DNA of 64,000 nt, from positions 140,379-204,378 of the forward strand of contig QWPW01000001.1 in assembly GCA_003671025.1 (NCBI GenBank), written 5' to 3'. Origin of the DNA: Planctomycetota bacterium. GTDB taxonomy: Bacteria; Planctomycetota; Phycisphaerae; Phycisphaerales; SM1A02. The notes under the pieces are model-generated. The model saw nothing but the letters and a program-made list of their open reading frames with translations, was not told the DNA's origin and searched no databases. Both the position numbers and the translations under genes were made by a program. Shown here piece after piece: positions 23,261 through 32,675 of this stretch (its first letter is position 1; every line of letters starts with the position of its first letter).

Positions 23261-24919
23261 GTGCAAGCATTACGAAACACGCTCGAACTCATCCGACTTC
23301 GCCTCACAGGACTTCCTGCGGCGGCCAAGTTGCTCGCTGGCAGCCTCGTCATCATCATGGCATTGGGGCTGTTTCTCATTGCGCAATGGAGTGCGACGAC
23401 GGGCTCGGTTCCTCTCGCAGTCAAAGCGGCGAGCTATGACGAAGCGCGGCAGTTTCTTATTGCACGGGGCGTTTCCTATCAGGAACAGAACGGGCAATTG
23501 ATGGTGCCGATGGAGCGACACGCGGAAATCCTCGCGCAGTTCGCCGAGCAAGGAGCGGGCAGCGACGGCGGTATCGACTTCACCAAGTTGGTTGAACTCG
23601 ACAGTCCGTTCGAAACGACGCGACAGAGCGAGACCAAGAAACTCATCGCGTTGCAGAATGTGCTCGCGCGCACCATCGGTGGATTTCGCAACGTCAAGAG
23701 CGCGACCGTGCTCATCTCGCCCAAACCTGCGACGCCACTGGGCGCATCGCGCAACGTGCAGACAGCAAGTGTGCACGTCACCATGCGCTCTGGTGGACTT
23801 ACGCAAGATCAAGTCGATTCGATTGCGTCGATGGTCGCGGGAACGCAGTCGGGGTTGAAGCCAGAAGCCGTTTCGATCACCGATGGCATGCAGGCGTATC
23901 GCACCACCTATGGCAAAGCCGGTGCTGGCGGCGAGAATCTCGAGCTCTCGCTCAAGATCGCAGACGCGGTTCAGGCGCGCGTCGGCTCGCTCCTTTCGTC
24001 GATTGAAGGAGTTCGCATCGCGGTGAACGCACAGGCGATTACCACTGAGCGCACCAAGACGTGGACGGAATACAAGGATGGCATTTCGGTTCCCTTGAGC
24101 GAGTCGAGTTCGAATTCCGAAATGAAAGGCGCGCCGCCATCGCGCGAACCAGGCACAGTTCCAAACACTGGCCTCGCGATTGTTTCAACCTCGGGCGGTG
24201 CTGCGCAGACTTCGACGGAACGTTCGGAAAACAAGTATCGCGCGGAGATTCCTGGCACGCGCTCGACTGAGCTCGATTCCACGGGATACGCAACCAAGAT
24301 CGATGTCGGCGTCACCATTCCGTGGAGTTACTTCTTGCGCGTGTGGCAGTTGAAGAATCCTGCCGAGGCGGGCGCCGAAGTGAAGGTGCCCGATGAGGCC
24401 GCGCTGGCACTCATTCGCGACGAAGAGATCGTGCGCATTCGCAAGTTGGTCGAGCCGCTCGCATCAACTGACGCAGTCGAGGGTTCGAAGAAGGGTGTGG
24501 TTGAAGTCACGTGGTTCTATGACTTCGCTGAACAAGCTCCACCAGCCACTCTTACCGCGGGTTTAGGCGAGTTTGTCGCGGGCGGCGATGGTGGGGGCGC
24601 AGCATTGATCAAGCCTGTAGGACTCGGCTTGCTTGCGATCGTGAGTCTCTTCTTCATGTTCAACATCGCCAAGAAGGCATCGACGCGCGAAGAACTTCCT
24701 AGTGCTGAAGAGCTCGCGGGCGTTCCACCGAAGCTCGAATCAGATGACGCGGAGATCGTCGGTGAAGCCGACGAAGCGACGCCGGCGCTCGAGGGCATGG
24801 AGCTCGATGATGATCATCTGCGCCGCGCGCAAATGCTCGAGCAACTCAATGAAATGGCAAGCCGCGAGCCTGCAGAACTCTCAGGCATTCTGCGCCGTTG
24901 GATGCGCGCGGCCGAATGA
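23261..24919 (+). CDS. fliF: Flagellar MS-ring protein FliF
   Basis: Forms the MS ring in the inner membrane, housing for the export gate and mount for FliG. Residues 25-45 form the first membrane helix (LAGSLVIIMALGLFLIAQW). Two ring-building motifs follow, including TTRQSETKKLIALQNVLART and the ISPK segment, and then a long periplasmic region. The second membrane helix is near 445-470 (LIKPVGLGLLAIVSLFFMF). The C-terminal cytoplasmic tail (RAQMLEQLNEMASREPAEL) is the FliG-binding region. The start is GTG at 23261 after GGAGG. It heads the fliFGHIJ run. Confidence 0.95.
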   Translation: MQALRNTLELIRLRLTGLPAAAKLLAGSLVIIMALGLFLIAQWSATTGSVPLAVKAASYDEARQFLIARGVSYQEQNGQLMVPMERHAEILAQFAEQGAGSDGGIDFTKLVELDSPFETTRQSETKKLIALQNVLARTIGGFRNVKSATVLISPKPATPLGASRNVQTASVHVTMRSGGLTQDQVDSIASMVAGTQSGLKPEAVSITDGMQAYRTTYGKAGAGGENLELSLKIADAVQARVGSLLSSIEGVRIAVNAQAITTERTKTWTEYKDGISVPLSESSSNSEMKGAPPSREPGTVPNTGLAIVSTSGGAAQTSTERSENKYRAEIPGTRSTELDSTGYATKIDVGVTIPWSYFLRVWQLKNPAEAGAEVKVPDEAALALIRDEEIVRIRKLVEPLASTDAVEGSKKGVVEVTWFYDFAEQAPPATLTAGLGEFVAGGDGGGAALIKPVGLGLLAIVSLFFMFNIAKKASTREELPSAEELAGVPPKLESDDAEIVGEADEATPALEGMELDDDHLRRAQMLEQLNEMASREPAELSGILRRWMRAAE

Positions 24920-24950
24920 TTTGACACGATTGATCAGACGAAAGTGACCA

Positions 24951-25991
24951 ATGGCATACCGCCCCGGCATGAAACTTCCGAAGTCTTCCGATGAACTTGA
25001 TGGTGTTCTTAAGAGCGCCATCCTGCTGCTGCTGCTTGATGCGGACAGCGCGGGACGACTACTCAAGGAAATGCCCACCGAAACGGTGGAAGAGGTCACG
25101 CGCGCACTCGCCGCGCTTGGTGATGTGCCGAAAGAATTGGGACAAGGTGTCATCAGCGAGTTCTATTCGCTCGCGATGGCGCAGGGCTATGTGCGTGAAG
25201 GCGGTCTCGACTATGCGCGCAACCTCCTGAAAAACTCGCTGGATCCTAAGACTGCAGATAAAGTCATTCAGCAGATTCAGACGCAAGTTCAGAAGACGCC
25301 GTTTGCGTTTTTGCAGAAGACGGAGAGCGAGAACTTGCTCACCTTCATTCAGGAAGAGCATCCGCAGACCATCGCGTTGATCGTGAGTCACTTGCCTCAT
25401 CACAAGGCGAGCGAAGTGCTCATTGGTCTTCCGCCCGCGAAGCAAATCGAAGTGGTGCGCCGTGTCGCCAACATGGAGCAGACCAATCCGGAAGTGATTC
25501 GCGAAGTCGAGAGCGCGCTGGAGAGTCGTCTCTCCAACATGATTGGTACCTCGAGCGAGAAGGTCGGCGGCGTGGAAACCGTCGCAGAAATTCTCAACCT
25601 CGTCGATCGTTCAACCGAACGCAGCATCATGCAAGGCGTCGAGAGCGAGGACCCCGACTTGGTCGAAGAGATCCGTCGTCGCATGTTCGTGTTCGAAGAC
25701 ATCAACAGTGTCAACGACAAGGGCATTCAATCAGTGCTCAAAGAAATCGAGAACGACGAGTTGTGTCTCGCGCTCAAGACTGCGTCGGAAGCGCTCAAGA
25801 ACAAGATCCTCTCCAACATGTCCAGTCGTGCAGCCGAGTCGATTCGCGAAGACATGGAGTTCATGGGCCCGGTGCGCATCAGCGATGTCGAGGCTGCGCA
25901 ACAACGCATCGTCGACGTGGTGCGTCGACTCGAAGAAGCGGGCGAGATCATCATCTCCGGCCGCGGCGGCGAGAAGGATGTGGTGGTTTGA
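24951..25991 (+). CDS. fliG: Flagellar motor switch protein FliG
   Basis: Rotor protein linking the MS ring to the switch and interacting with the stator. All three domains are present: N-terminal FliF-binding, middle with EHPQT at 136-140, and C-terminal torque domain with the charged helix region (VFEDINSVNDKGIQSVLKEI and DELCLALKTASE). Length 346 is typical. The start is ATG at 24951, 31 bases after fliF. It shares an operon with fliF and fliH. Confidence 0.96.
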   Translation: MAYRPGMKLPKSSDELDGVLKSAILLLLLDADSAGRLLKEMPTETVEEVTRALAALGDVPKELGQGVISEFYSLAMAQGYVREGGLDYARNLLKNSLDPKTADKVIQQIQTQVQKTPFAFLQKTESENLLTFIQEEHPQTIALIVSHLPHHKASEVLIGLPPAKQIEVVRRVANMEQTNPEVIREVESALESRLSNMIGTSSEKVGGVETVAEILNLVDRSTERSIMQGVESEDPDLVEEIRRRMFVFEDINSVNDKGIQSVLKEIENDELCLALKTASEALKNKILSNMSSRAAESIREDMEFMGPVRISDVEAAQQRIVDVVRRLEEAGEIIISGRGGEKDVVV

Positions 25992-26100
25992 CGCGTGCGC
26001 CCGCGCAGCGCACTCGCGGCGCGTGGCACGCATCAAAGTTGATCGAAGAGTCTTTTCGCGGCGCTGAAGTGCTGCAGTTCCAGCGTTCGTGAGTTGATCC

Positions 26101-26883
26101 ATGTCCGTGCTCAAGCCTTCATCTCCGCGTGCACAATCGGCGCAAGGCAACGTCTTCGACCTCGGCGATTTGCGTCGCGATGCCGAAGCGGTGCTGCGAA
26201 ATGCTCGCGCCGAAGCAGTGCGCATCTTGGATGAAGCGCGCAAGGGTGGTGATGCCGCGCGCGCGACAGGGCGACTCGAAGGAATCGAACAGGGGCGCGC
26301 AGAAGGGCTCGCGCGCGGGCTAGAAGAGGGCCGCACAACTGGCGCGAACGATGGTCGTACTGCTGCGACGGCGTTGCATTGCCAATCGTTGGCGGCGATC
26401 GAAGAGAGTTTCTCCACTGCGTTCTTGCACTGGATTGCGCTGCGCGACGAACACATGCGCGAAGCAGAGCGTGAGCTCGCGGGCGTTGCAGTTGCCATCG
26501 CGGAACGCATTGTCGGTGAGAAAATCGCCCACGATCCTCGCATTGTGACGCGTGAAGTTGCGGCGGCAGTCGCGTTGTTTTCGCGCGCCACGCGCGTATC
26601 GATTGAGATCGCACCTGAAGACGAAGCGATCGTGAGCGAGTCAATGTCTGTGCTGCGCGCACAGTTGCCCGCCGGCGCCGATGTTGAGTTGATCGCGCGC
26701 GAAGGCATTGCACGAGGTGGCTGCGTCATTCGCTCGAGCGAGGGCACGGTTGATGCACGGATTGAGATGCAGTTTCGGCGCATGCGCGACGGAATCACCG
26801 GCGTGATGCTCGTTGATGATGAGGCCGCGCAGACGGATGATTCGCGCAACCCTCGCGCCGACTCGAGCGAGGATCCTTCGTGA
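26101..26883 (+). CDS. fliH: Flagellar export regulator FliH
   Basis: Stator-like negative regulator of the FliI ATPase, linking it to the C ring. The protein has the expected Ala/Glu/Arg-rich coiled region with GxxxG-type repeats (GRLEGIEQGRAEGLARGLEEG), an AEREL...AERIVGEKI segment, and the C-terminal FliH/HrpE domain with ARGGCVIRSSEGTVDARIE. Its stop overlaps the fliI start (GTGA), so it is translationally coupled to its partner. Confidence 0.92.
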   Translation: MSVLKPSSPRAQSAQGNVFDLGDLRRDAEAVLRNARAEAVRILDEARKGGDAARATGRLEGIEQGRAEGLARGLEEGRTTGANDGRTAATALHCQSLAAIEESFSTAFLHWIALRDEHMREAERELAGVAVAIAERIVGEKIAHDPRIVTREVAAAVALFSRATRVSIEIAPEDEAIVSESMSVLRAQLPAGADVELIAREGIARGGCVIRSSEGTVDARIEMQFRRMRDGITGVMLVDDEAAQTDDSRNPRADSSEDPS

Positions 26884-28334
26884 AACTCTCATCAATCACC
26901 GCGGCGGTGCGCTCAATCGAACCACGCGAAATCGCGGGCACGGTGCGCGCAGTCAAAGGTTTGGTGCTTTCGGTAGAGCAACTTCCGCTGCCTGTGGGAT
27001 CGCTGGTGCGCGTGCTTGTTCCGCATCGCATGGACGCGCCGCGCGGTGAAGTGGTTGGCTTTGACGGTTCACGCGCGCTCGTGATGTTGCTCACCGAAGC
27101 TGAGGGAATCTCCAGCGGTGTGCGTGTCATCGGTGAGCAGCCCTATGCGACCGTTGGTGTCAGCGAGCAATGGCTCGGTCGCGTTGTTGATGCACTTGGC
27201 CGACCCATCGACGGCAAGGGGCGCATCGCACCCGGATCACCGCAACCGATTTGGCCCGCGCGCACCAGTCCGCTCACGCGTGGTGTAGTGCGCGAGATCC
27301 TGCCCACCGGCGTGCGCGCGATTGACTCGATGCTCACGATTGGCAAAGGTCAGCGCATGGGAATCTTCGCCGGTCCTGGTGTGGGCAAGAGCACGTTGCT
27401 TGGATCGATCGCACGCGGCACGAGCGCGCATGTCAACGTCATCGGTCTCGTTGGTGAGCGTGGTCGCGAAGTACCGGAGTTTTTGCATCACGTGCTCGGT
27501 GAAGAAGGACTGAAGCGCTCCGTCGTCGTCGTTGCGACTGGTGATGAGAGTCCGCTCATGCGCGTGCGCGCCGCGACCGTGGCGTGCAGCGTCGCGGAAT
27601 ATTTTCGCGATGGCGGACTCGATGTGATGTTGATGATTGACTCGATCACGCGCTTTGCACAAGCGCAGCGACAGATCGGTCTTTCAGCGGGAGAAGCGCC
27701 CGCAACCAAGGGATTCACGCCCAGTGTGTTTGCATTGTTGCCGCGATTGCTTGAGCGCGCGGGTTCGATCGAAGGAAGCGGATCGATCACCGGCTTCTAC
27801 ACGGTGCTTGTGGAAGGCGACGACATGACCGAACCGATTGCCGATGCCGCGAAGGGAATTCTTGACGGGCACATCGTGCTCTCGCGTCGACTCGCGGAGC
27901 GCACGCATTACCCCGCGATTGATGTGCTCGCGTCGATCTCGCGCGTTGCCGATCAAGTGTCGCATTACCCCGCGATTGATGTGCTCGCGTCGATCTCGCG
28001 CGTTGCCGATCAAGTGTCGGACAAGAATCACGCGCAGGCGCGTCGTCACATGTCGCGCATGTTGGCGGCGTATCGCGAGGCGGAAGAGCTCATTCAAATC
28101 GGCGCGTACGCCAAGGGTTCGAATCCCGATGTGGACGCGGCGATCGCGCTGAAGCCTTCAATTGAAGCGTTTTTGCGCCAAGGCTCCGACGAGCGATGCG
28201 AGTTGCCGCGCACATTGCGCGCACTCATGGACATCTCGACCACTGCAGAAAACCTTGGGCGTCGCACGTCACCATCGACGCCTGCAACTGCGCCAACGAT
28301 GACCGCTCAAAGCGCGTCCTCACCGCGAAAGTAA
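26880..28334 (+). CDS. fliI: Flagellum-specific ATPase FliI with internal duplication
   Basis: Hexameric F1-like ATPase that energises flagellar protein export. Visible are the N-terminal beta-barrel, Walker A (GPGVGKST, in IFAGPGVGKSTLLG), the GERGREVPEF segment, Walker B (DVMLMIDSITRFAQAQRQI) and the PATKGFTPSVFALLPRLLERAG region. Residues 343-361 (HYPAIDVLASISRVADQVS) are repeated exactly at 362-380. The doubled segment contains the SxSR motif whose arginine corresponds to the F1-family arginine-finger region. At 484 residues the protein is longer than the usual 440, partly for this reason. The start is GTG at 26880, overlapping the fliH stop. Confidence 0.94.
   Translation: MKLSSITAAVRSIEPREIAGTVRAVKGLVLSVEQLPLPVGSLVRVLVPHRMDAPRGEVVGFDGSRALVMLLTEAEGISSGVRVIGEQPYATVGVSEQWLGRVVDALGRPIDGKGRIAPGSPQPIWPARTSPLTRGVVREILPTGVRAIDSMLTIGKGQRMGIFAGPGVGKSTLLGSIARGTSAHVNVIGLVGERGREVPEFLHHVLGEEGLKRSVVVVATGDESPLMRVRAATVACSVAEYFRDGGLDVMLMIDSITRFAQAQRQIGLSAGEAPATKGFTPSVFALLPRLLERAGSIEGSGSITGFYTVLVEGDDMTEPIADAAKGILDGHIVLSRRLAERTHYPAIDVLASISRVADQVSHYPAIDVLASISRVADQVSDKNHAQARRHMSRMLAAYREAEELIQIGAYAKGSNPDVDAAIALKPSIEAFLRQGSDERCELPRTLRALMDISTTAENLGRRTSPSTPATAPTMTAQSASSPRK
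27904..28017 (+). repeat. 57-bp perfect in-frame tandem duplication in fliI
   Basis: Copies at 27904-27960 and 27961-28017 are identical, and the match extends two bases further. The unit is 19 codons, so the frame is kept. Excision of one copy would restore a canonical FliI. Confidence 0.95.
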
Positions 28335-28391
28335 TCACTCAACCGCGAACCGCAACGAATTCGGTCGCACCAAAGACTCTCAGCACGAACC

Positions 28392-28859
28392 ATGGCCCGA
28401 TTTCGATTTGCATTGCAGCGCGTCCTTGACCGCCGCCTCGACGAGGAGGAGGTCAAGCGTCGTGCTTTGGCATCAGTCGAAGGACAGCGGCGCAAACTCG
28501 AACAGTCGCTTCGCGATCGACAAGCGGAGATTGCACAAGGACGCGACGCGTGGCGCGATGGACTCGTTGGGGTGATCGATCCCGCGGCGCTGCGTCATCA
28601 CGCTGTTGCGGGTGTGGGGTTGATGCGCAAAGCGCAGCGAACGGTGTTGGAAATGGCAGGATTGGAGAAGGCGCTGGTCAAGACGCGCGCCGAACTTGTC
28701 GAAGCTGCGCGTGCACGACGAACGTTGGAAATCTTGCGCGAGCAACGACTCGCGGTGCATCACGCGATTGAAGCAAGTCACGAACGCGCGGGCATGGATG
28801 AAATGGCCGCGAACAACGCTCGTCGCAATCGCGAGGGCGAGGAAGCGATACCTGTATGA
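28392..28859 (+). CDS. fliJ: Flagellar FliJ protein
   Basis: Coiled-coil export component that sits in the FliI ring like F1 gamma. The 155-residue protein begins FRFALQRVLDRRLDEEEVKR and is nearly all charged helix, the FliJ pattern. The position after fliI and the size support the call more than any motif. It overlaps the next gene by ATGA. Confidence 0.82.
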   Translation: MARFRFALQRVLDRRLDEEEVKRRALASVEGQRRKLEQSLRDRQAEIAQGRDAWRDGLVGVIDPAALRHHAVAGVGLMRKAQRTVLEMAGLEKALVKTRAELVEAARARRTLEILREQRLAVHHAIEASHERAGMDEMAANNARRNREGEEAIPV

Positions 28860-29734
28860 AGACGATGTTTCGATTGCTCACAGTGCTCGCGTTCGCAAAC
28901 TTGTTGGCGCTCGCAGGCTTTGGCGGTTGGCTCTATGCCACGGGGCGCGTCGATGAGGCGCGCCTCGAGCGCATTCGCGAGATGTTCTCCACCACCGTGG
29001 TTGAAGAACAACTGACACTGGGCGAAATCGCTGCAAAAGACGCAGAAAAAGTGCGTCTCGACGGAGAAGCGCGCTCACTCCTTGAGGTCCCACTTTCGCG
29101 CACCGAACAAATCGTGACCAGCGAACGATTCGAGGAACGCGCCGCGCTGGCCATGCGTGGACTCGAGGACAGTCATCATCGATTGCAACAGGATCTCATC
29201 GAGCGAGAGCAAGGCGTGACGCAGCGCGAAGAGGCGTTGGTCGAGCGCACCAAAGAGTGGGAAGCATCGATCGCCACCGAAAAGGATCGCACCACCGACG
29301 AGCAGTTTCGCAAAGCCGTTCGTCTGTTAGAGAGTGTTCCACCCAAGCAGGGGCGCGAATGGATTCTTGAATTAGTGAAACGCGATCGCGAGTCGACGGC
29401 GGTGGCGTACCTCGACGCAATGAATCGCGCGAAGTCTTCGGCGCTGCTCAAAGCGTTCAAGGGCGAGGCGGAGGCGAAGGTGGCAACGGATTTGCTTGAG
29501 CGTGTCCGACTGCTTGGTCTCGAGAGCGAGGCCGGCTCGGAACGCCCTAATGCTGCCAAATCTGCCGACTCTTCCGTCAATCGTGGCATCAATCCTGCCC
29601 GCTCCCCGCTCCCCGCGGGCGGAGCCGCCAATCTCGGCACCCCCGCGCGAGGCGCGCCCAACAGCCCGCTCACCCTTCCACGACCTGATGCAACGGGATC
29701 TGCGCCAAGCGCAGGCAAGCCCAACGCTCAGTGA
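28856..29734 (+). CDS. MotE-like flagellar membrane protein
   Basis: The N-terminal membrane segment (LTVLAFANLLALAGFGGWLY) is followed by a long charged coiled coil (about 35-150). A MgtE-N-like helical module (EQFRKAVRLLESVPPKQGREWILEL, then DRESTAVAYLDAMNRAKSSALLKAF) comes next, and a Pro/Ala/Ser tail ends the protein. This order and the place between fliJ and fliK fit the MotE/YlxF group of periplasmic or membrane flagellar chaperones. The last 185 bases overlap fliK in another frame. The family assignment is by architecture. Confidence 0.68.
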   Translation: MKTMFRLLTVLAFANLLALAGFGGWLYATGRVDEARLERIREMFSTTVVEEQLTLGEIAAKDAEKVRLDGEARSLLEVPLSRTEQIVTSERFEERAALAMRGLEDSHHRLQQDLIEREQGVTQREEALVERTKEWEASIATEKDRTTDEQFRKAVRLLESVPPKQGREWILELVKRDRESTAVAYLDAMNRAKSSALLKAFKGEAEAKVATDLLERVRLLGLESEAGSERPNAAKSADSSVNRGINPARSPLPAGGAANLGTPARGAPNSPLTLPRPDATGSAPSAGKPNAQ

Positions 29735-31469
29735 CTCGCTGACGCAACGCACGCAGCGCAGCTCTCCCAAAAACTCGCACAACGCGACAAGTGCGACGGG
29801 TGATGAGCACGATCGCTCGCAGCGTGACAATGCAAAGACGACGCACGAGCGTCAAGCGAACGATCTCGCCCGGGGACAAGGAAATGAGTCACGGAATGCG
29901 CGAGTGCAGCGCGCGCGTGAGCGCGATCATGACGCGGCAACTCGTGATGAATCCGCCCAGCGCGTCGAGAGTGAATCAAGCATCGCCGCGAGCGAAGACG
30001 AATCGCGTGTTCATCGCGACGACTCACTCAACGAGACATCTGCGCAAACGGCAACGTCTTCTGCACCCGTCGAGGTTGTGACGCAAGACGAGGACAGGAG
30101 CACCAGCGCCGGCGGAGCAAGTCTCGATGACGATGGCGTGAGTAGTCTGGTGATGAACGCGGTGCAACCTTCGTCGATCAACGCAACGGCCGCCAGCATC
30201 AGTGCGCAGGCGCTCTCGCAAGGCGCGGCACTCGCGGCGAGCGTCGCGATCGACTCGCCGTCCGCAGCAGAGCATGTGTCTGGATTGCCATCAGTCGACG
30301 CGGCGAGTTCCTTCACCACCGGCAATATTGCTACTCAAACCGCGGATTCAGCGAGTGTTCTTGCCGAAGCAGCCAACGCAATTCCCTCGGCGGCCACCGC
30401 GATTGACGCGACCTCCAATGAACTCGCAGCGAGTGATGCGCGAAGCAGCGTCGAGGGCGCAAGCAACGGTCGACATCGCGATGCAGGAAATACCCGCGCA
30501 ACGGGCGAGCAGTCGTCAAGCGCAGCGGCAACGAACAACGCGGTCCGCGCTGCGAGCGATCCGCTGGCTCGACTGATTGAATCCGCACAATTCTCGTTGC
30601 GTGAGAGCACTCTCTCCGCGCCATCAAGCGCGGCGGTGTCTGGCCGATTGGCGCAGGTCGAATCGGAAATCTCACGCATGCGCGCGGCGCAGCAGATCGC
30701 GTCGGGCGCAGTGTCAATCGATGCGAGTGATGAGTCGGCGAGCGGCAGCGGTGCAACATCGCCGGTGCTTTCGAGCGCGGCACTCAATGCTCAAACTGGT
30801 TCAACGAACGCACACACCAACGCGGCAGGGATCTCAATGCCGCTGATCGCAACAGTCGAAGGCGCAACTTCTGCGACATCGACGTTGCCTGCCGAGGTGC
30901 CGTCGTCAAACCCCTTTGAGAATCCCGCTGCGGCCAAACTCGCGGCGAAAGGTGCGGAAATCCTCGCGAATCAGCGCGGTGGCACCATCACCATGCGCTT
31001 GGAGCCGCCTGCGCTGGGTCAATTGCGCATCGAACTACGCATCTCGCAAGGGGCAGTTGTTGCCGACTTCACCGCCGCAACCCCCGAGGCACGCGCGTTG
31101 CTTGAAGCGAACCTTGGAATGCTTCGTGAACGTCTCGAATCTCAAGGTCTCTCCGTCGAGCGCATCAGTGTGCACGGCGGAACTCGTGGCACGGAAGCCA
31201 CCTCAGCTCCACTTGGACAAAGTGGTCATGAGTCGCGCCAGGATGGTGCGGACAACAGAGATCGTGGGGAGCGCGCGTCGACGCGGCAGGATGCAGCGGG
31301 GGGTGAAAGTCGAGGGCGTCGGGACGACGCTCAAGACGGACGCAAGCGCACGGACGCGCTCGCAGTCGATGAGGCCAATGAGCGAAAGGGGGCCTTGCGC
31401 GGATTCGCGGGCGTCCTTCACGGTGTTGCAGATCCGCGAGGCGCGAACTCTTCGCGGCGCGCGAGTTGA
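29550..31469 (+). CDS. fliK: Flagellar hook-length control protein FliK
   Basis: Secreted ruler that stops hook growth and switches export specificity. About 480 residues of low-complexity Ser/Ala/Thr/Glu sequence precede a C-terminal Flg_hook domain (MRLEPPALGQLRIELRISQG, then ALLEANLGMLRERLESQGL), and the tail is strongly hydrophilic (RDRGERASTR...). The start is uncertain: an ATG at 29550 gives MLPNLPTLPSIVASILP and overlaps the MotE-like gene by 185 bases, while an ATG at 29688 would overlap by 47. The first reads like a natural N-terminus. Confidence 0.87.
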   Translation: MLPNLPTLPSIVASILPAPRSPRAEPPISAPPREARPTARSPFHDLMQRDLRQAQASPTLSDSLTQRTQRSSPKNSHNATSATGDEHDRSQRDNAKTTHERQANDLARGQGNESRNARVQRARERDHDAATRDESAQRVESESSIAASEDESRVHRDDSLNETSAQTATSSAPVEVVTQDEDRSTSAGGASLDDDGVSSLVMNAVQPSSINATAASISAQALSQGAALAASVAIDSPSAAEHVSGLPSVDAASSFTTGNIATQTADSASVLAEAANAIPSAATAIDATSNELAASDARSSVEGASNGRHRDAGNTRATGEQSSSAAATNNAVRAASDPLARLIESAQFSLRESTLSAPSSAAVSGRLAQVESEISRMRAAQQIASGAVSIDASDESASGSGATSPVLSSAALNAQTGSTNAHTNAAGISMPLIATVEGATSATSTLPAEVPSSNPFENPAAAKLAAKGAEILANQRGGTITMRLEPPALGQLRIELRISQGAVVADFTAATPEARALLEANLGMLRERLESQGLSVERISVHGGTRGTEATSAPLGQSGHESRQDGADNRDRGERASTRQDAAGGESRGRRDDAQDGRKRTDALAVDEANERKGALRGFAGVLHGVADPRGANSSRRAS

Positions 31470-31508: not shown

Positions 31509-32093
31509 ATGAGCACGATTGACGCACTCGCTGGAGCCGGCCCGATTCAACCTGCGGGAAATCGATTCAATGACCTCTCGAGCGAAGAGTTCATCAAGAT
31601 CATCTTCACCGAGCTTTCCAATCAGGATCCCTTCAAGCCGAATGATTCATCGGCGCTTCTGGAACAGCTCAATTCCATCCGGTCAATCGAGAGCGATATG
31701 CAGCTGTCCAAGGACCTGCAGGGCATCGTGTTCCAGAATCAACTGGCGACCGCGGGCAACTTGATTGGCAAGCGCGTCGCGGGCATGACCGCGGACAATG
31801 ATCGTGTTGGTGGCGTGGTCAAGAGTGTCGCTCGCAGCGGCGACGAGATCGCGCTCATCCTTGACAACGGTTGGATCCTCCCTATCGATAATGTCGAATT
31901 CATCGATCAAAACCCGACTCCTACCCCTCCGGTGATTCCCTCGCCTGGCGCGGGCGCTGGCGCGGGGACTCCTACACCGCCGCCGACCCAATCGAGCGTG
32001 GTGGCAAATTGGGGGCAGGGTGGGCCATCGGATCTCAACGGCGACGGCGCTGTTGATGCGCAGGATCTGGCCAAGTTGCTTAGTGGTGGTTGA
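31509..32093 (+). CDS. flgD: Hook-capping protein FlgD fused to a dockerin-type motif
   Basis: FlgD caps the growing hook and guides FlgE assembly. Residues 20-80 carry the FlgD N-terminal domain (SSEEFIKIIFTELSNQDPFKP, LLEQLNSIRSIES), and 84-132 form a small SH3/Tudor-like domain (GKRVAGM...DEIALILDNGWILPIDNVEFI). The protein resembles the short FlgD/YlxG type. A Pro/Gly linker (135-163) then leads to residues 165-194, which contain ANWGQGGPSDLNGDGAVDAQ, a dockerin type I/EF-hand calcium loop with D175, N177, D179, D183 and D186. This motif is common at the C-terminus of secreted planctomycete proteins but unexpected on a hook cap. CAGGAG precedes the ATG. Confidence 0.92.
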   Translation: MSTIDALAGAGPIQPAGNRFNDLSSEEFIKIIFTELSNQDPFKPNDSSALLEQLNSIRSIESDMQLSKDLQGIVFQNQLATAGNLIGKRVAGMTADNDRVGGVVKSVARSGDEIALILDNGWILPIDNVEFIDQNPTPTPPVIPSPGAGAGAGTPTPPPTQSSVVANWGQGGPSDLNGDGAVDAQDLAKLLSGG

Positions 32094-32180: not shown

Positions 32181-32675
32181 ATGACAATCGACCCGCGCCA
32201 ACTTCTCCGACGACTCGAGCCTGCAGTGCGGCCCACGGGGACCGGTTCTGCGCGCGGCCGAGTGTCGGCGGCCGACGGCGGATTCACTGAACTGCTCTCA
32301 CTCGCGCGTGACGGCGCGATCGAGAGTGCGCGTGAACCCGAGATGGCCGATGGCGCGACGCTTGAACCCGCGACGATGGCGCAAGTGGCGCGCGCGTTGG
32401 ATCTCGCGCAAGGACGTGGTGCGCGTCGCGCAGTCATCGTCGCCGAAGGGCGCACTTTCATCGCTGATGTTTCATCGCGTCGCCTAGAGCGCTTGGAAAC
32501 TCGTGATGACTTCGTCTTTGAAGAAGTCGATGCCGCCATCGCAATTCGCGGCGAAACAGCAACATTCGCGCAACGCCCATTGGGGCCACGCGCACTTCCC
32601 CCGCGCGAAATCGCGGAGCAATTCGAATCACTTTCTCTCGACCAGACGCCACGCGCGCAACGCGCTAGCGCCTGA
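32181..32675 (+). CDS. Flagellar operon protein, TIGR02530-like
   Basis: A 164-residue protein between flgD and flgE, the usual position of the small TIGR02530 (Flg_new) flagellar protein. The central segment, LDLAQGRGARRAVIVAEGRT followed by FIADVSSRRLERL, matches that family's pattern of an Ala/Gly-rich helix, a hydrophobic strand and a VSVKNRTVI-type strand. It is longer than the family's roughly 100 residues because of tails on both sides. No catalytic motif is seen. A role in hook assembly is inferred from position. Confidence 0.55.
   Translation: MTIDPRQLLRRLEPAVRPTGTGSARGRVSAADGGFTELLSLARDGAIESAREPEMADGATLEPATMAQVARALDLAQGRGARRAVIVAEGRTFIADVSSRRLERLETRDDFVFEEVDAAIAIRGETATFAQRPLGPRALPPREIAEQFESLSLDQTPRAQRASA

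What the first reader, a model, noticed from the sequence alone, without database searches (positions are those of the whole stretch)
31911..32090. Hook-cap protein FlgD carries a C-terminal dockerin-type calcium motif
FlgD normally ends with its Ig/Tudor-like domains and is discarded when the hook is complete. Here a Pro/Gly linker and a planctomycete dockerin-type segment (residues 165-194, core DLNGDGAVDAQDL) follow a short FlgD. Seen directly: the EF-hand-like loop with acidic residues at 175, 177 (Asn), 179, 183 and 186. Known: such motifs end many secreted planctomycete proteins and, in clostridia, bind cohesins. Inference: the hook cap could be held or released in a Ca-dependent way, or the exported cap could dock to a cell-surface cohesin or other partner. 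Only one loop is present where classical dockerins have two, so it may dimerise (FlgD caps are pentamers) or act as a plain Ca site.
Basis: partly seen in the sequence, partly recalled or inferred. Interest (0 to 1): 0.75.

Follow-up and report, generated by a model that had tools for sequence, protein, structure and literature searches.

The report
Calcium-loop tail on flagellar hook cap
In some planctomycete bacteria the protein that caps the growing flagellar hook ends in a dockerin-type loop, a tail that was likely added at least three separate times; it is predicted to bind calcium and fold outside the cell, and would then hold the cap subunits together.

Summary
FlgD (31509-32093, 194 aa) ends in a dockerin-type EF loop, DLNGDGAVDAQD, residues 175-186, the only strict dockerin loop in window open frames of 80 codons or more. 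It is not an assembly join: 20 of 120 listed homologues carry it, each stopping 7-8 residues after the loop. On a tree of 102 FlgD cores the 20 rows with this tail form one group (91/93); a differently framed loop tail marks a second (6 rows, 100/99); one shared clade is rejected (AU p 0.0085). A third FlgD, the only one of 119 read outside the family, has two loops and passes Pfam's dockerin cut-off. Loop codons look constrained (pN/pS 0.27 and 0.21). AlphaFold predicts helix-loop-helix on a flexible leash. The genome encodes cohesins like the published 'planctosome', but cohesin matches do not track the tail (4 of 10 against 11 of 59, p 0.21), in a search that misses some. Best reading: a Ca2+-binding unit that folds after type III export and pairs between cap subunits; Ca2+ binding and pairing are inferred. 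A new variant of FlgD, not a full dockerin.

The parts
31509..32093 (+). flgD, hook-cap protein with tail, 194 aa plus stop
   Evidence: ORF and Pfam FlgD above cut-off; Foldseek's top match is the Salmonella FlgD hook cap 7bhq (E 0.016, prob 0.99, TM 0.33)
31569..31721 (+). FlgD N-terminal (capping) domain, residues 21-71
   Evidence: Pfam PF03963
31773..31907 (+). Tudor-like beta domain, residues 89-133 (predicted)
   Evidence: predicted strands, block pLDDT 88-90 over 81-130; FLgD_tudor matched by 11 of 24 members of A1 at E 0.1, not by the window copy
31908..31988 (+). Pro/Gly/Thr-rich linker, residues 134-160, predicted disordered
   Evidence: pLDDT under 50 in 137-142 and 146-155; length and sequence vary among homologues
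31989..32090 (+). helix-loop-helix (single EF-hand, half-dockerin) tail, residues 161-194 (fold predicted)
   Evidence: predicted helices 161-166 and 184-191, block pLDDT 85-90 over 161-190; conserved VxxxWG, loop and DLAxxL
32031..32066 (+). 12-residue EF loop DLNGDGAVDAQD, residues 175-186
   Evidence: sequence; profile of 14 tails hits solved dockerins 4fl4, 2mte, 1daq first
29496..31469 (+). fliK, hook-length control (start not settled)
   Evidence: Pfam Flg_hook 69.8 bits
32701..34461 (+). flgE-type hook protein (probable start counted by eye; the longest ORF begins at 32503)
   Evidence: Pfam Flg_bb_rod, FlgE_D2, Flg_bbr_C
23261..28859 (+). fliF, fliG, fliH, a fliI-position ATPase ORF and fliJ of the same cluster (FliI named by position and by eye, not scanned)
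   Evidence: Pfam; ORF 26880-28334

Best explanation
This hook-cap protein FlgD ends in a single dockerin-type EF loop on a predicted flexible leash; the tail is likely unfolded in the low-calcium cytoplasm, would pass through the type III export channel as an open chain, and is predicted to bind Ca2+ and fold outside, where it would clasp the tail of a neighbouring cap subunit. Shown by sequence: FlgD identity, the loop, its fixed place at the C-terminus, its conservation against a variable linker, and loop tails in three separate FlgD lineages. Predicted: the helix-loop-helix fold and the disordered linker. Inferred and untested: Ca2+ binding, folding after export, and pairing between the subunits of the cap (five in Salmonella, PMC8595650), which would steady the cap on the growing hook in calcium-containing water and loosen it when calcium is low. 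EF-hands usually work in pairs (recalled), so a lone unit on an oligomeric protein is expected to find its partner on the next subunit.
For: FlgD identity and cluster. Tail in 20 of 120 listed homologues and its 20 sampled rows one group on the core tree, 91/93, not starred. Independent second gain: tail-B group of 6, 100/99, one-clade hypothesis rejected p 0.0085. Third case: two-loop FlgD L250, Dockerin_1 27.3 bits over the 22.9 cut-off. Constraint on loop codons: pN/pS 0.27 (21 pairs of 7 sequences) and 0.21 (15 pairs of 6). Invariant loop positions are ligands, the glycine and hydrophobic residues, while positions 7 and 11 vary. AlphaFold: helix, loop, helix at block pLDDT 85-90, linker under 50. 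The Salmonella cap is a pentamer whose C-terminal domains form the petals and contact neighbours, and FlgD is exported unstructured (PMC8595650, passages). Deleting the Salmonella FlgD C-terminus did not reduce export (PMC10936197, passages), so a C-terminal addition need not harm export.
Against: No Ca2+ binding, folding or oligomer data exist. The window protein alone is below Pfam's dockerin and EF-hand cut-offs. Four genus members with FlgD have no loop tail, so the tail is not needed for a cap. One listed homologue, P0030, matches tailed P0017 up to the linker and then reads into unrelated residues without the loop, which looks like a frameshift, real or by sequencing. Tail B lacks the upstream helix in the model and G243 has two loops, so one common pairing geometry is not shown. 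At least 136 half-dockerin matches in this genome mean that gain of such a loop by shuffling is easy here, so repeated gain is weaker evidence of function than it would be elsewhere.
Confidence: 0.42

Rival explanations
1. The tail docks the cap, or the cap after its release, to a cohesin-bearing surface or secreted complex, such as the 'planctosome' proposed for lake Phycisphaerae.
For: The genome encodes a 517-aa protein with a cohesin (40.1 bits when its first 192 aa are scanned), a sub-cut-off HYR match and a dockerin, and a protein of 2232 codons (2210 from the methionine at 24 of the 2233-codon frame) with LTD, P-domains, TSP3 and a cohesin (28.8 bits when 167 aa are scanned), the domains published for the planctosome adaptor and the 2,210-aa anchor (PMC6461901 passages). 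A tailed FlgD (L180) comes from a MAG named in that paper, ZH-13MAY13-plancto44. The tail profile's best PDB matches are dockerins. One search misses some cohesins, so the lack of association is not final.
Against: Cohesin matches do not follow the tail: 4 of 10 tailed and 11 of 59 untailed family genomes, p 0.21; within the genus 3 of 4 and 3 of 4. Tail-B genomes: 1 of 6 with a match, below the cut-off. One loop where cohesin-binding dockerins have two; loop position 11 varies. The whole-protein scan did not list the cohesins; they showed when pieces were scanned.
Confidence: 0.2
2. The tail is a plain Ca2+-binding or folding anchor whose value lies in export itself: folding outside acts as a ratchet or keeps the chain from sliding back, with no partner.
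For: Short unit, fixed C-terminal position, conserved ligand and hydrophobic positions; works equally for one-loop and two-loop tails.
Against: FlgD of most relatives has no such tail (59 of 69 family genomes show no loop, two of these not fully readable).
Confidence: 0.2
3. The tail is a neutral passenger picked up from the many dockerin-type genes of these genomes.
For: At least 136 half-dockerin matches in the genome; the nearest is an EF-hand protein on another contig whose unit is almost the same. P0030 looks like a copy that lost the loop by a frameshift.
Against: pN/pS 0.21-0.27 with high synonymous divergence, no loop-less row inside the 20-row group of the tree (P0030 was not in it), fixed C-terminus, three likely gains.
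Confidence: 0.13
4. An assembly join or mis-called stop.
For: None found.
Against: Same architecture in many separate assemblies and metagenomes.
Confidence: 0.01

Closest known systems
FlgD hook-cap protein (PF03963; Salmonella cap structures 7bhq and PMC8595650)
   Same: Capping N-domain, predicted Tudor-like domain, flagellar cluster near fliK and flgE
   Different: Short form (no full Tudor/FnIII hybrid) plus linker and a single EF unit; no loop seen in 59 of 69 family FlgD (two not fully readable) or in 118 of 119 others read (one not fully readable)
Type I dockerin (PF00404)
   Same: 12-residue DxNxDGxxxxxD loop followed by a DL(A)xxL helix; profile matches 4fl4, 2mte, 1daq
   Different: One loop instead of two; reframed as helix-loop-helix; window copy below cut-off; no cohesin association found
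NCBI GC-type dockerin (NF041540) and the planctosome dockerins of lake Phycisphaerae (PMC6461901)
   Same: Similar loop, and cohesin proteins with the published domains are in this genome
   Different: The published adaptor and anchor have signal peptides, with peptidases as cargo; FlgD is a type III export substrate by family. FlgD did not match NF041540 at E 0.1
Multi-unit EF-hand protein of the same genome (L148, 296 aa)
   Same: Nearest tail relative found in the genome: unit GSVLGNWGQGGASDLNGDGTIDAQDLAQALSGQ
   Different: Three such units plus two canonical EF-hands; no flagellar neighbour recognised by eye; present in all 10 genus genomes searched, tailed FlgD or not

Membership tests
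FlgD hook cap | PF03963 domain over cut-off | tested here: met
   35.2 bits against 27; 24 of 24 A1 members match at E 0.1
FlgD hook cap | Tudor-like C-terminal domain | tested here: met
   by prediction: strands 89-133, Foldseek matches to FlgD and Tudor/Sm folds (weak); PF13861 in 11 of 24 A1 members at E 0.1, not in the window copy
FlgD hook cap | encoded in a flagellar cluster | tested here: met
   fliF, fliG, fliH, fliJ, fliK, flgE neighbours; three Flagellin_N matches on another contig
[quoted passage not shown]
   known for Salmonella (PMC8595650, passages)
Type I dockerin | calcium loop with D1, N/D3, D5, D/N9, D12 | tested here: met
   kept in 16 distinct versions
Type I dockerin | two loop-helix repeats | tested here: not met
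   one loop only in tails A and B; two loops in L250 of another family
Type I dockerin | Pfam cut-off reached | tested here: not met
   15.5 bits against 22.9 in the window copy; homologue P0015 is listed with PF00404, and L250 passes
Type I dockerin | binds a cohesin | tested here: inconclusive
   only by co-occurrence: no association, in a search that misses some cohesins; binding not testable
EF-hand | helix-loop-helix with Ca ligands | tested here: met
   loop residues and predicted structure; below Pfam's EF-hand cut-offs; Ca2+ binding itself not testable
Planctosome component | belongs with cohesin adaptor and anchor as peptidase cargo or scaffold | tested here: not met
   cohesin proteins present in the genome, but FlgD has no peptidase domain and its tail does not track cohesin matches

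The most novel reading that the evidence does not exclude
Flagellar hook assembly in these planctomycetes is a calcium-gated step: the cap is locked by in-trans pairing of dockerin halves outside the cell, and the same halves can hand the discarded cap, or the hook tip itself, to the cohesin network of the cell surface, joining the type III export route to a Sec-exported scaffold.
Probability: 0.1. Interest if true: 0.82.

Novelty: new variant of a known kind. Interest (0 to 1): 0.52.

Why it matters
I found no report of a calcium module on FlgD: searches pairing FlgD or flagellar hooks with dockerin, EF-hand or calcium-binding listed no paper on it by title or abstract start. Those listings were not opened apart from the planctosome paper, and only open-licence papers were searched. 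If the tail folds only outside the cell, it gives a natural case of post-export folding of a flagellar type III substrate, and repeated gain gives a comparative test of whether calcium shapes hook building. It also shows the dockerin-type module of planctomycetes used on a flagellar protein rather than in a cellulosome-like setting.

Tried and rejected
Assembly join: rejected, same architecture in separate assemblies. Cohesin docking as main function: weakened by co-occurrence counts, with the caveat that one search found one of the two cohesins that one search found in the own genome, and that the whole-protein Pfam scan listed no cohesin while scans of pieces did. C-terminal export signal: Salmonella FlgD appears to have none (PMC10936197 passages). 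One shared origin of tails A and B: rejected by the AU test. Flagellar role of the multi-unit EF-hand protein L148: no flagellar neighbour recognised by eye in the ORF list, and present whether FlgD is tailed or not, so left as a note. A regex hit in L189 (the acidic tail also seen in G299) was dropped by eye as not an EF loop. One search's script recovered ORFs for only part of its 30 loci and was not used for counts; one search's script stopped on an error and was replaced. The PDB fold search gave no match at E <= 0.001. Two literature searches returned nothing.

Full report
What is there. The ORF at 31509-32093 encodes a 194-residue FlgD (Pfam FlgD 35.2 bits, cut-off 27) in a flagellar cluster with fliF, fliG, fliH, fliJ, fliK and a flgE-type gene. 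Three Flagellin_N matches lie on another contig of the same genome. The C-terminal part reads: predicted Tudor-like domain (89-133), Pro/Gly linker (134-160), then QSSVVANWGQGGPSDLNGDGAVDAQDLAKLLSGG. The loop is DLNGDGAVDAQD, residues 175-186. The window protein's Dockerin_1 score is below the curated cut-off (15.5 against 22.9 bits), while a profile of 14 tails finds solved dockerins first (4fl4, 2mte, 1daq).

It is more than chance. The strict loop occurs once among six-frame open frames of 80 codons or more in the window. Of 120 listed homologues (625 found), 20 carry the loop. In 16 distinct loop versions D1, N3, D5, G6, D12, L13 and L17 are invariant, while positions 7 and 11 take six and five residues; each of these proteins ends 7 or 8 residues after D12. 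Of the 24 members of alignment A1, 18 of which carry the tail, 17 match Dockerin_1 at E <= 0.1. One listed homologue, P0030, equals tailed P0017 up to the linker and then loses the loop, apparently by a frameshift.

Where it occurs. In 151 genomes of the same family, 70 have a FlgD match; 69 ORFs were read (one at a contig end was not fetched). Reading the printed tails, 4 have the window-type tail (A: G000, G393, G410, G246), 6 a different one (B: G182, G354, G333, G371, G255, G331) in which the loop is followed by a helix ending GQW and lacks the upstream VxxxWG, and 59 show no loop (of the 59 one has unread letters in its tail and one runs off the fetched DNA). Outside the family the class survey matched 186 genomes (203 of 298 in all, 17 of them of the family); I read the 119 whose places were listed and fetched, the better-scoring ones. 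One of 119, L250 of genome G243 in the same order, has a two-loop tail, the loops 44 residues apart, with a Dockerin_1 match over the cut-off (27.3 bits, on the second loop) and FlgD at 49.6 bits. By record titles tail A includes lake and pond samples (Erken, ZH, pond) and tail B marine ones (TMED75, ALOHA, FRAM); this habitat reading is from titles only.

History. A tree of 102 FlgD cores (69 family rows, 16 of the 20 tailed and 17 of the 100 loop-less database proteins; tail left out) puts the 20 tail-A rows on one side of a branch (91/93, not starred) and the 6 tail-B rows on one side of another (100/99), two changes in all. Holding A and B together is rejected, p-AU 0.0085. The tree has few columns, many open forks and a midpoint root. 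With G243 this makes three likely separate gains; G243 was not in the tree. Loop codons: pN/pS 0.27 over 21 pairs (7 tail-A sequences, 17 codons, pS 0.71) and 0.21 over 15 pairs (6 tail-B sequences, 20 codons, pS 0.61), uncorrected distances. So the protein loop is kept while many silent sites have turned over.

Shape. AlphaFold2 on 59 sequences (mean pLDDT 71, pTM 0.35) gives helix 161-166, the loop, and helix 184-191 at block pLDDT 85-90, with the linker under 50 in 137-142 and 146-155. The best Foldseek match is the Salmonella FlgD cap 7bhq (E 0.016, prob 0.99, TM 0.33), with no match at E <= 0.001. For tail B the model shows the loop and one 13-residue helix after it. Tail A is thus a reframed half-dockerin: helix, loop, helix. 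Most of the 45 Dockerin_1 matches of the genome span profile positions of about 2-52 of 57, that is both repeats.

Surroundings in the genome. There are 45 Dockerin_1 matches at E <= 0.001 and 136 matches to the tail profile at E <= 0.1; in both searches only 150 candidates were scored (of 158 and 228), so these are lower bounds. Several carriers read by eye start with signal-peptide-like N-termini (not counted). The nearest relative of the FlgD tail (48 bits) is in a protein with no evident signal peptide, three such units and two canonical EF-hands, matched at E <= 1e-12 in all 10 genus genomes and five others of 151. The genome also encodes a 517-aa cohesin and dockerin protein with a weak HYR match (19.7 bits against 21.7) and a 2232-codon frame (2210 from the methionine at residue 24 of the 2233-codon open frame) with LTD, P-domains, TSP3 and a cohesin. 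Whole-protein scans did not list the cohesins; scans of pieces did, at 40.1 and 28.8 bits over the 24.1 cut-off. These are the domains of the adaptor and the 2,210-aa anchor of the proposed planctosome (PMC6461901; passages read), though the legend lists the adaptor's dockerin first and here the cohesin comes first. FlgD and hook are not found in that paper's main text. One MAG named there, ZH-13MAY13-plancto44, holds a tailed FlgD (L180).

Does it dock to cohesins? Cohesin matches at E <= 0.01 occur in 4 of 10 tailed and 11 of 59 untailed family genomes with FlgD (Fisher p 0.21), and in 3 of 4 and 3 of 4 within the genus. 1 of 6 tail-B genomes has a match, below the cut-off. Twelve cohesin-matching genomes have no FlgD match. 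Caveat: one search found one of the two cohesins seen in the own genome, so absences are uncertain. This does not exclude docking in tail-A species but gives it no support as the general role.

Mechanism. The Salmonella cap is five FlgD with C-terminal domains as petals that touch neighbours, built from subunits exported unfolded (PMC8595650, passages). FlgD showed no C-terminal export signal there (PMC10936197, passages), so a C-terminal addition is tolerable. A lone EF unit on each subunit, with ligand and hydrophobic positions fixed, fits Ca2+-driven folding after export and pairing with the same unit on the next subunit. Pairing of EF-hands is recalled knowledge. Ca2+ binding, folding after export, pairing and any effect on hook assembly are untested.

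Verdict. A real, conserved, repeatedly gained dockerin-type loop tail on the hook cap; a new variant of FlgD using half a dockerin; partner and effect open.

Noticed in passing
L148:697-1584 (-) (own genome, contig C12): A 296-aa protein without an evident signal peptide has three half-dockerin units and two canonical EF-hands and ends in ILSARA; it is matched in all 10 genus genomes and five others of 151, and the eight orthologues read end in ILS(A/V)(R/K)(A/V) or LVNAKA.
   Followed up: partly
L146:4941-11636 (-) and L146:12030-13583 (+): Planctosome-like anchor (LTD, P-domains, TSP3, cohesin) and adaptor (cohesin, weak HYR, dockerin) lie next to each other on opposite strands, near an 864-codon open frame ending in a two-loop dockerin.
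   Followed up: partly
L250:965-1630 (+): FlgD of another family in the order ends in two EF loops 44 residues apart and passes Pfam's dockerin cut-off.
   Followed up: yes
P0030 (database protein): A tailed-type FlgD whose tail runs out of register before the loop, apparently a frameshift, real or by sequencing.
   Followed up: partly
FlgD tails of G299, G353, G349, G321 and others: Several loop-less family FlgD end instead in long acidic or Gly/Ser/Asp-rich stretches, possibly another way of binding cations.
   Followed up: no
window 32181-32675 (+): The ORF between flgD and flgE has no Pfam match at E 1, but its start MTIDPRQLLRRLEPAVRP recurs after flgD in genus member G209.
   Followed up: no
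L147 and L150 (own genome): Half-dockerin units also sit near the N-terminal end of formylglycine-generating-enzyme-like proteins (named by eye), before the main domain.
   Followed up: no
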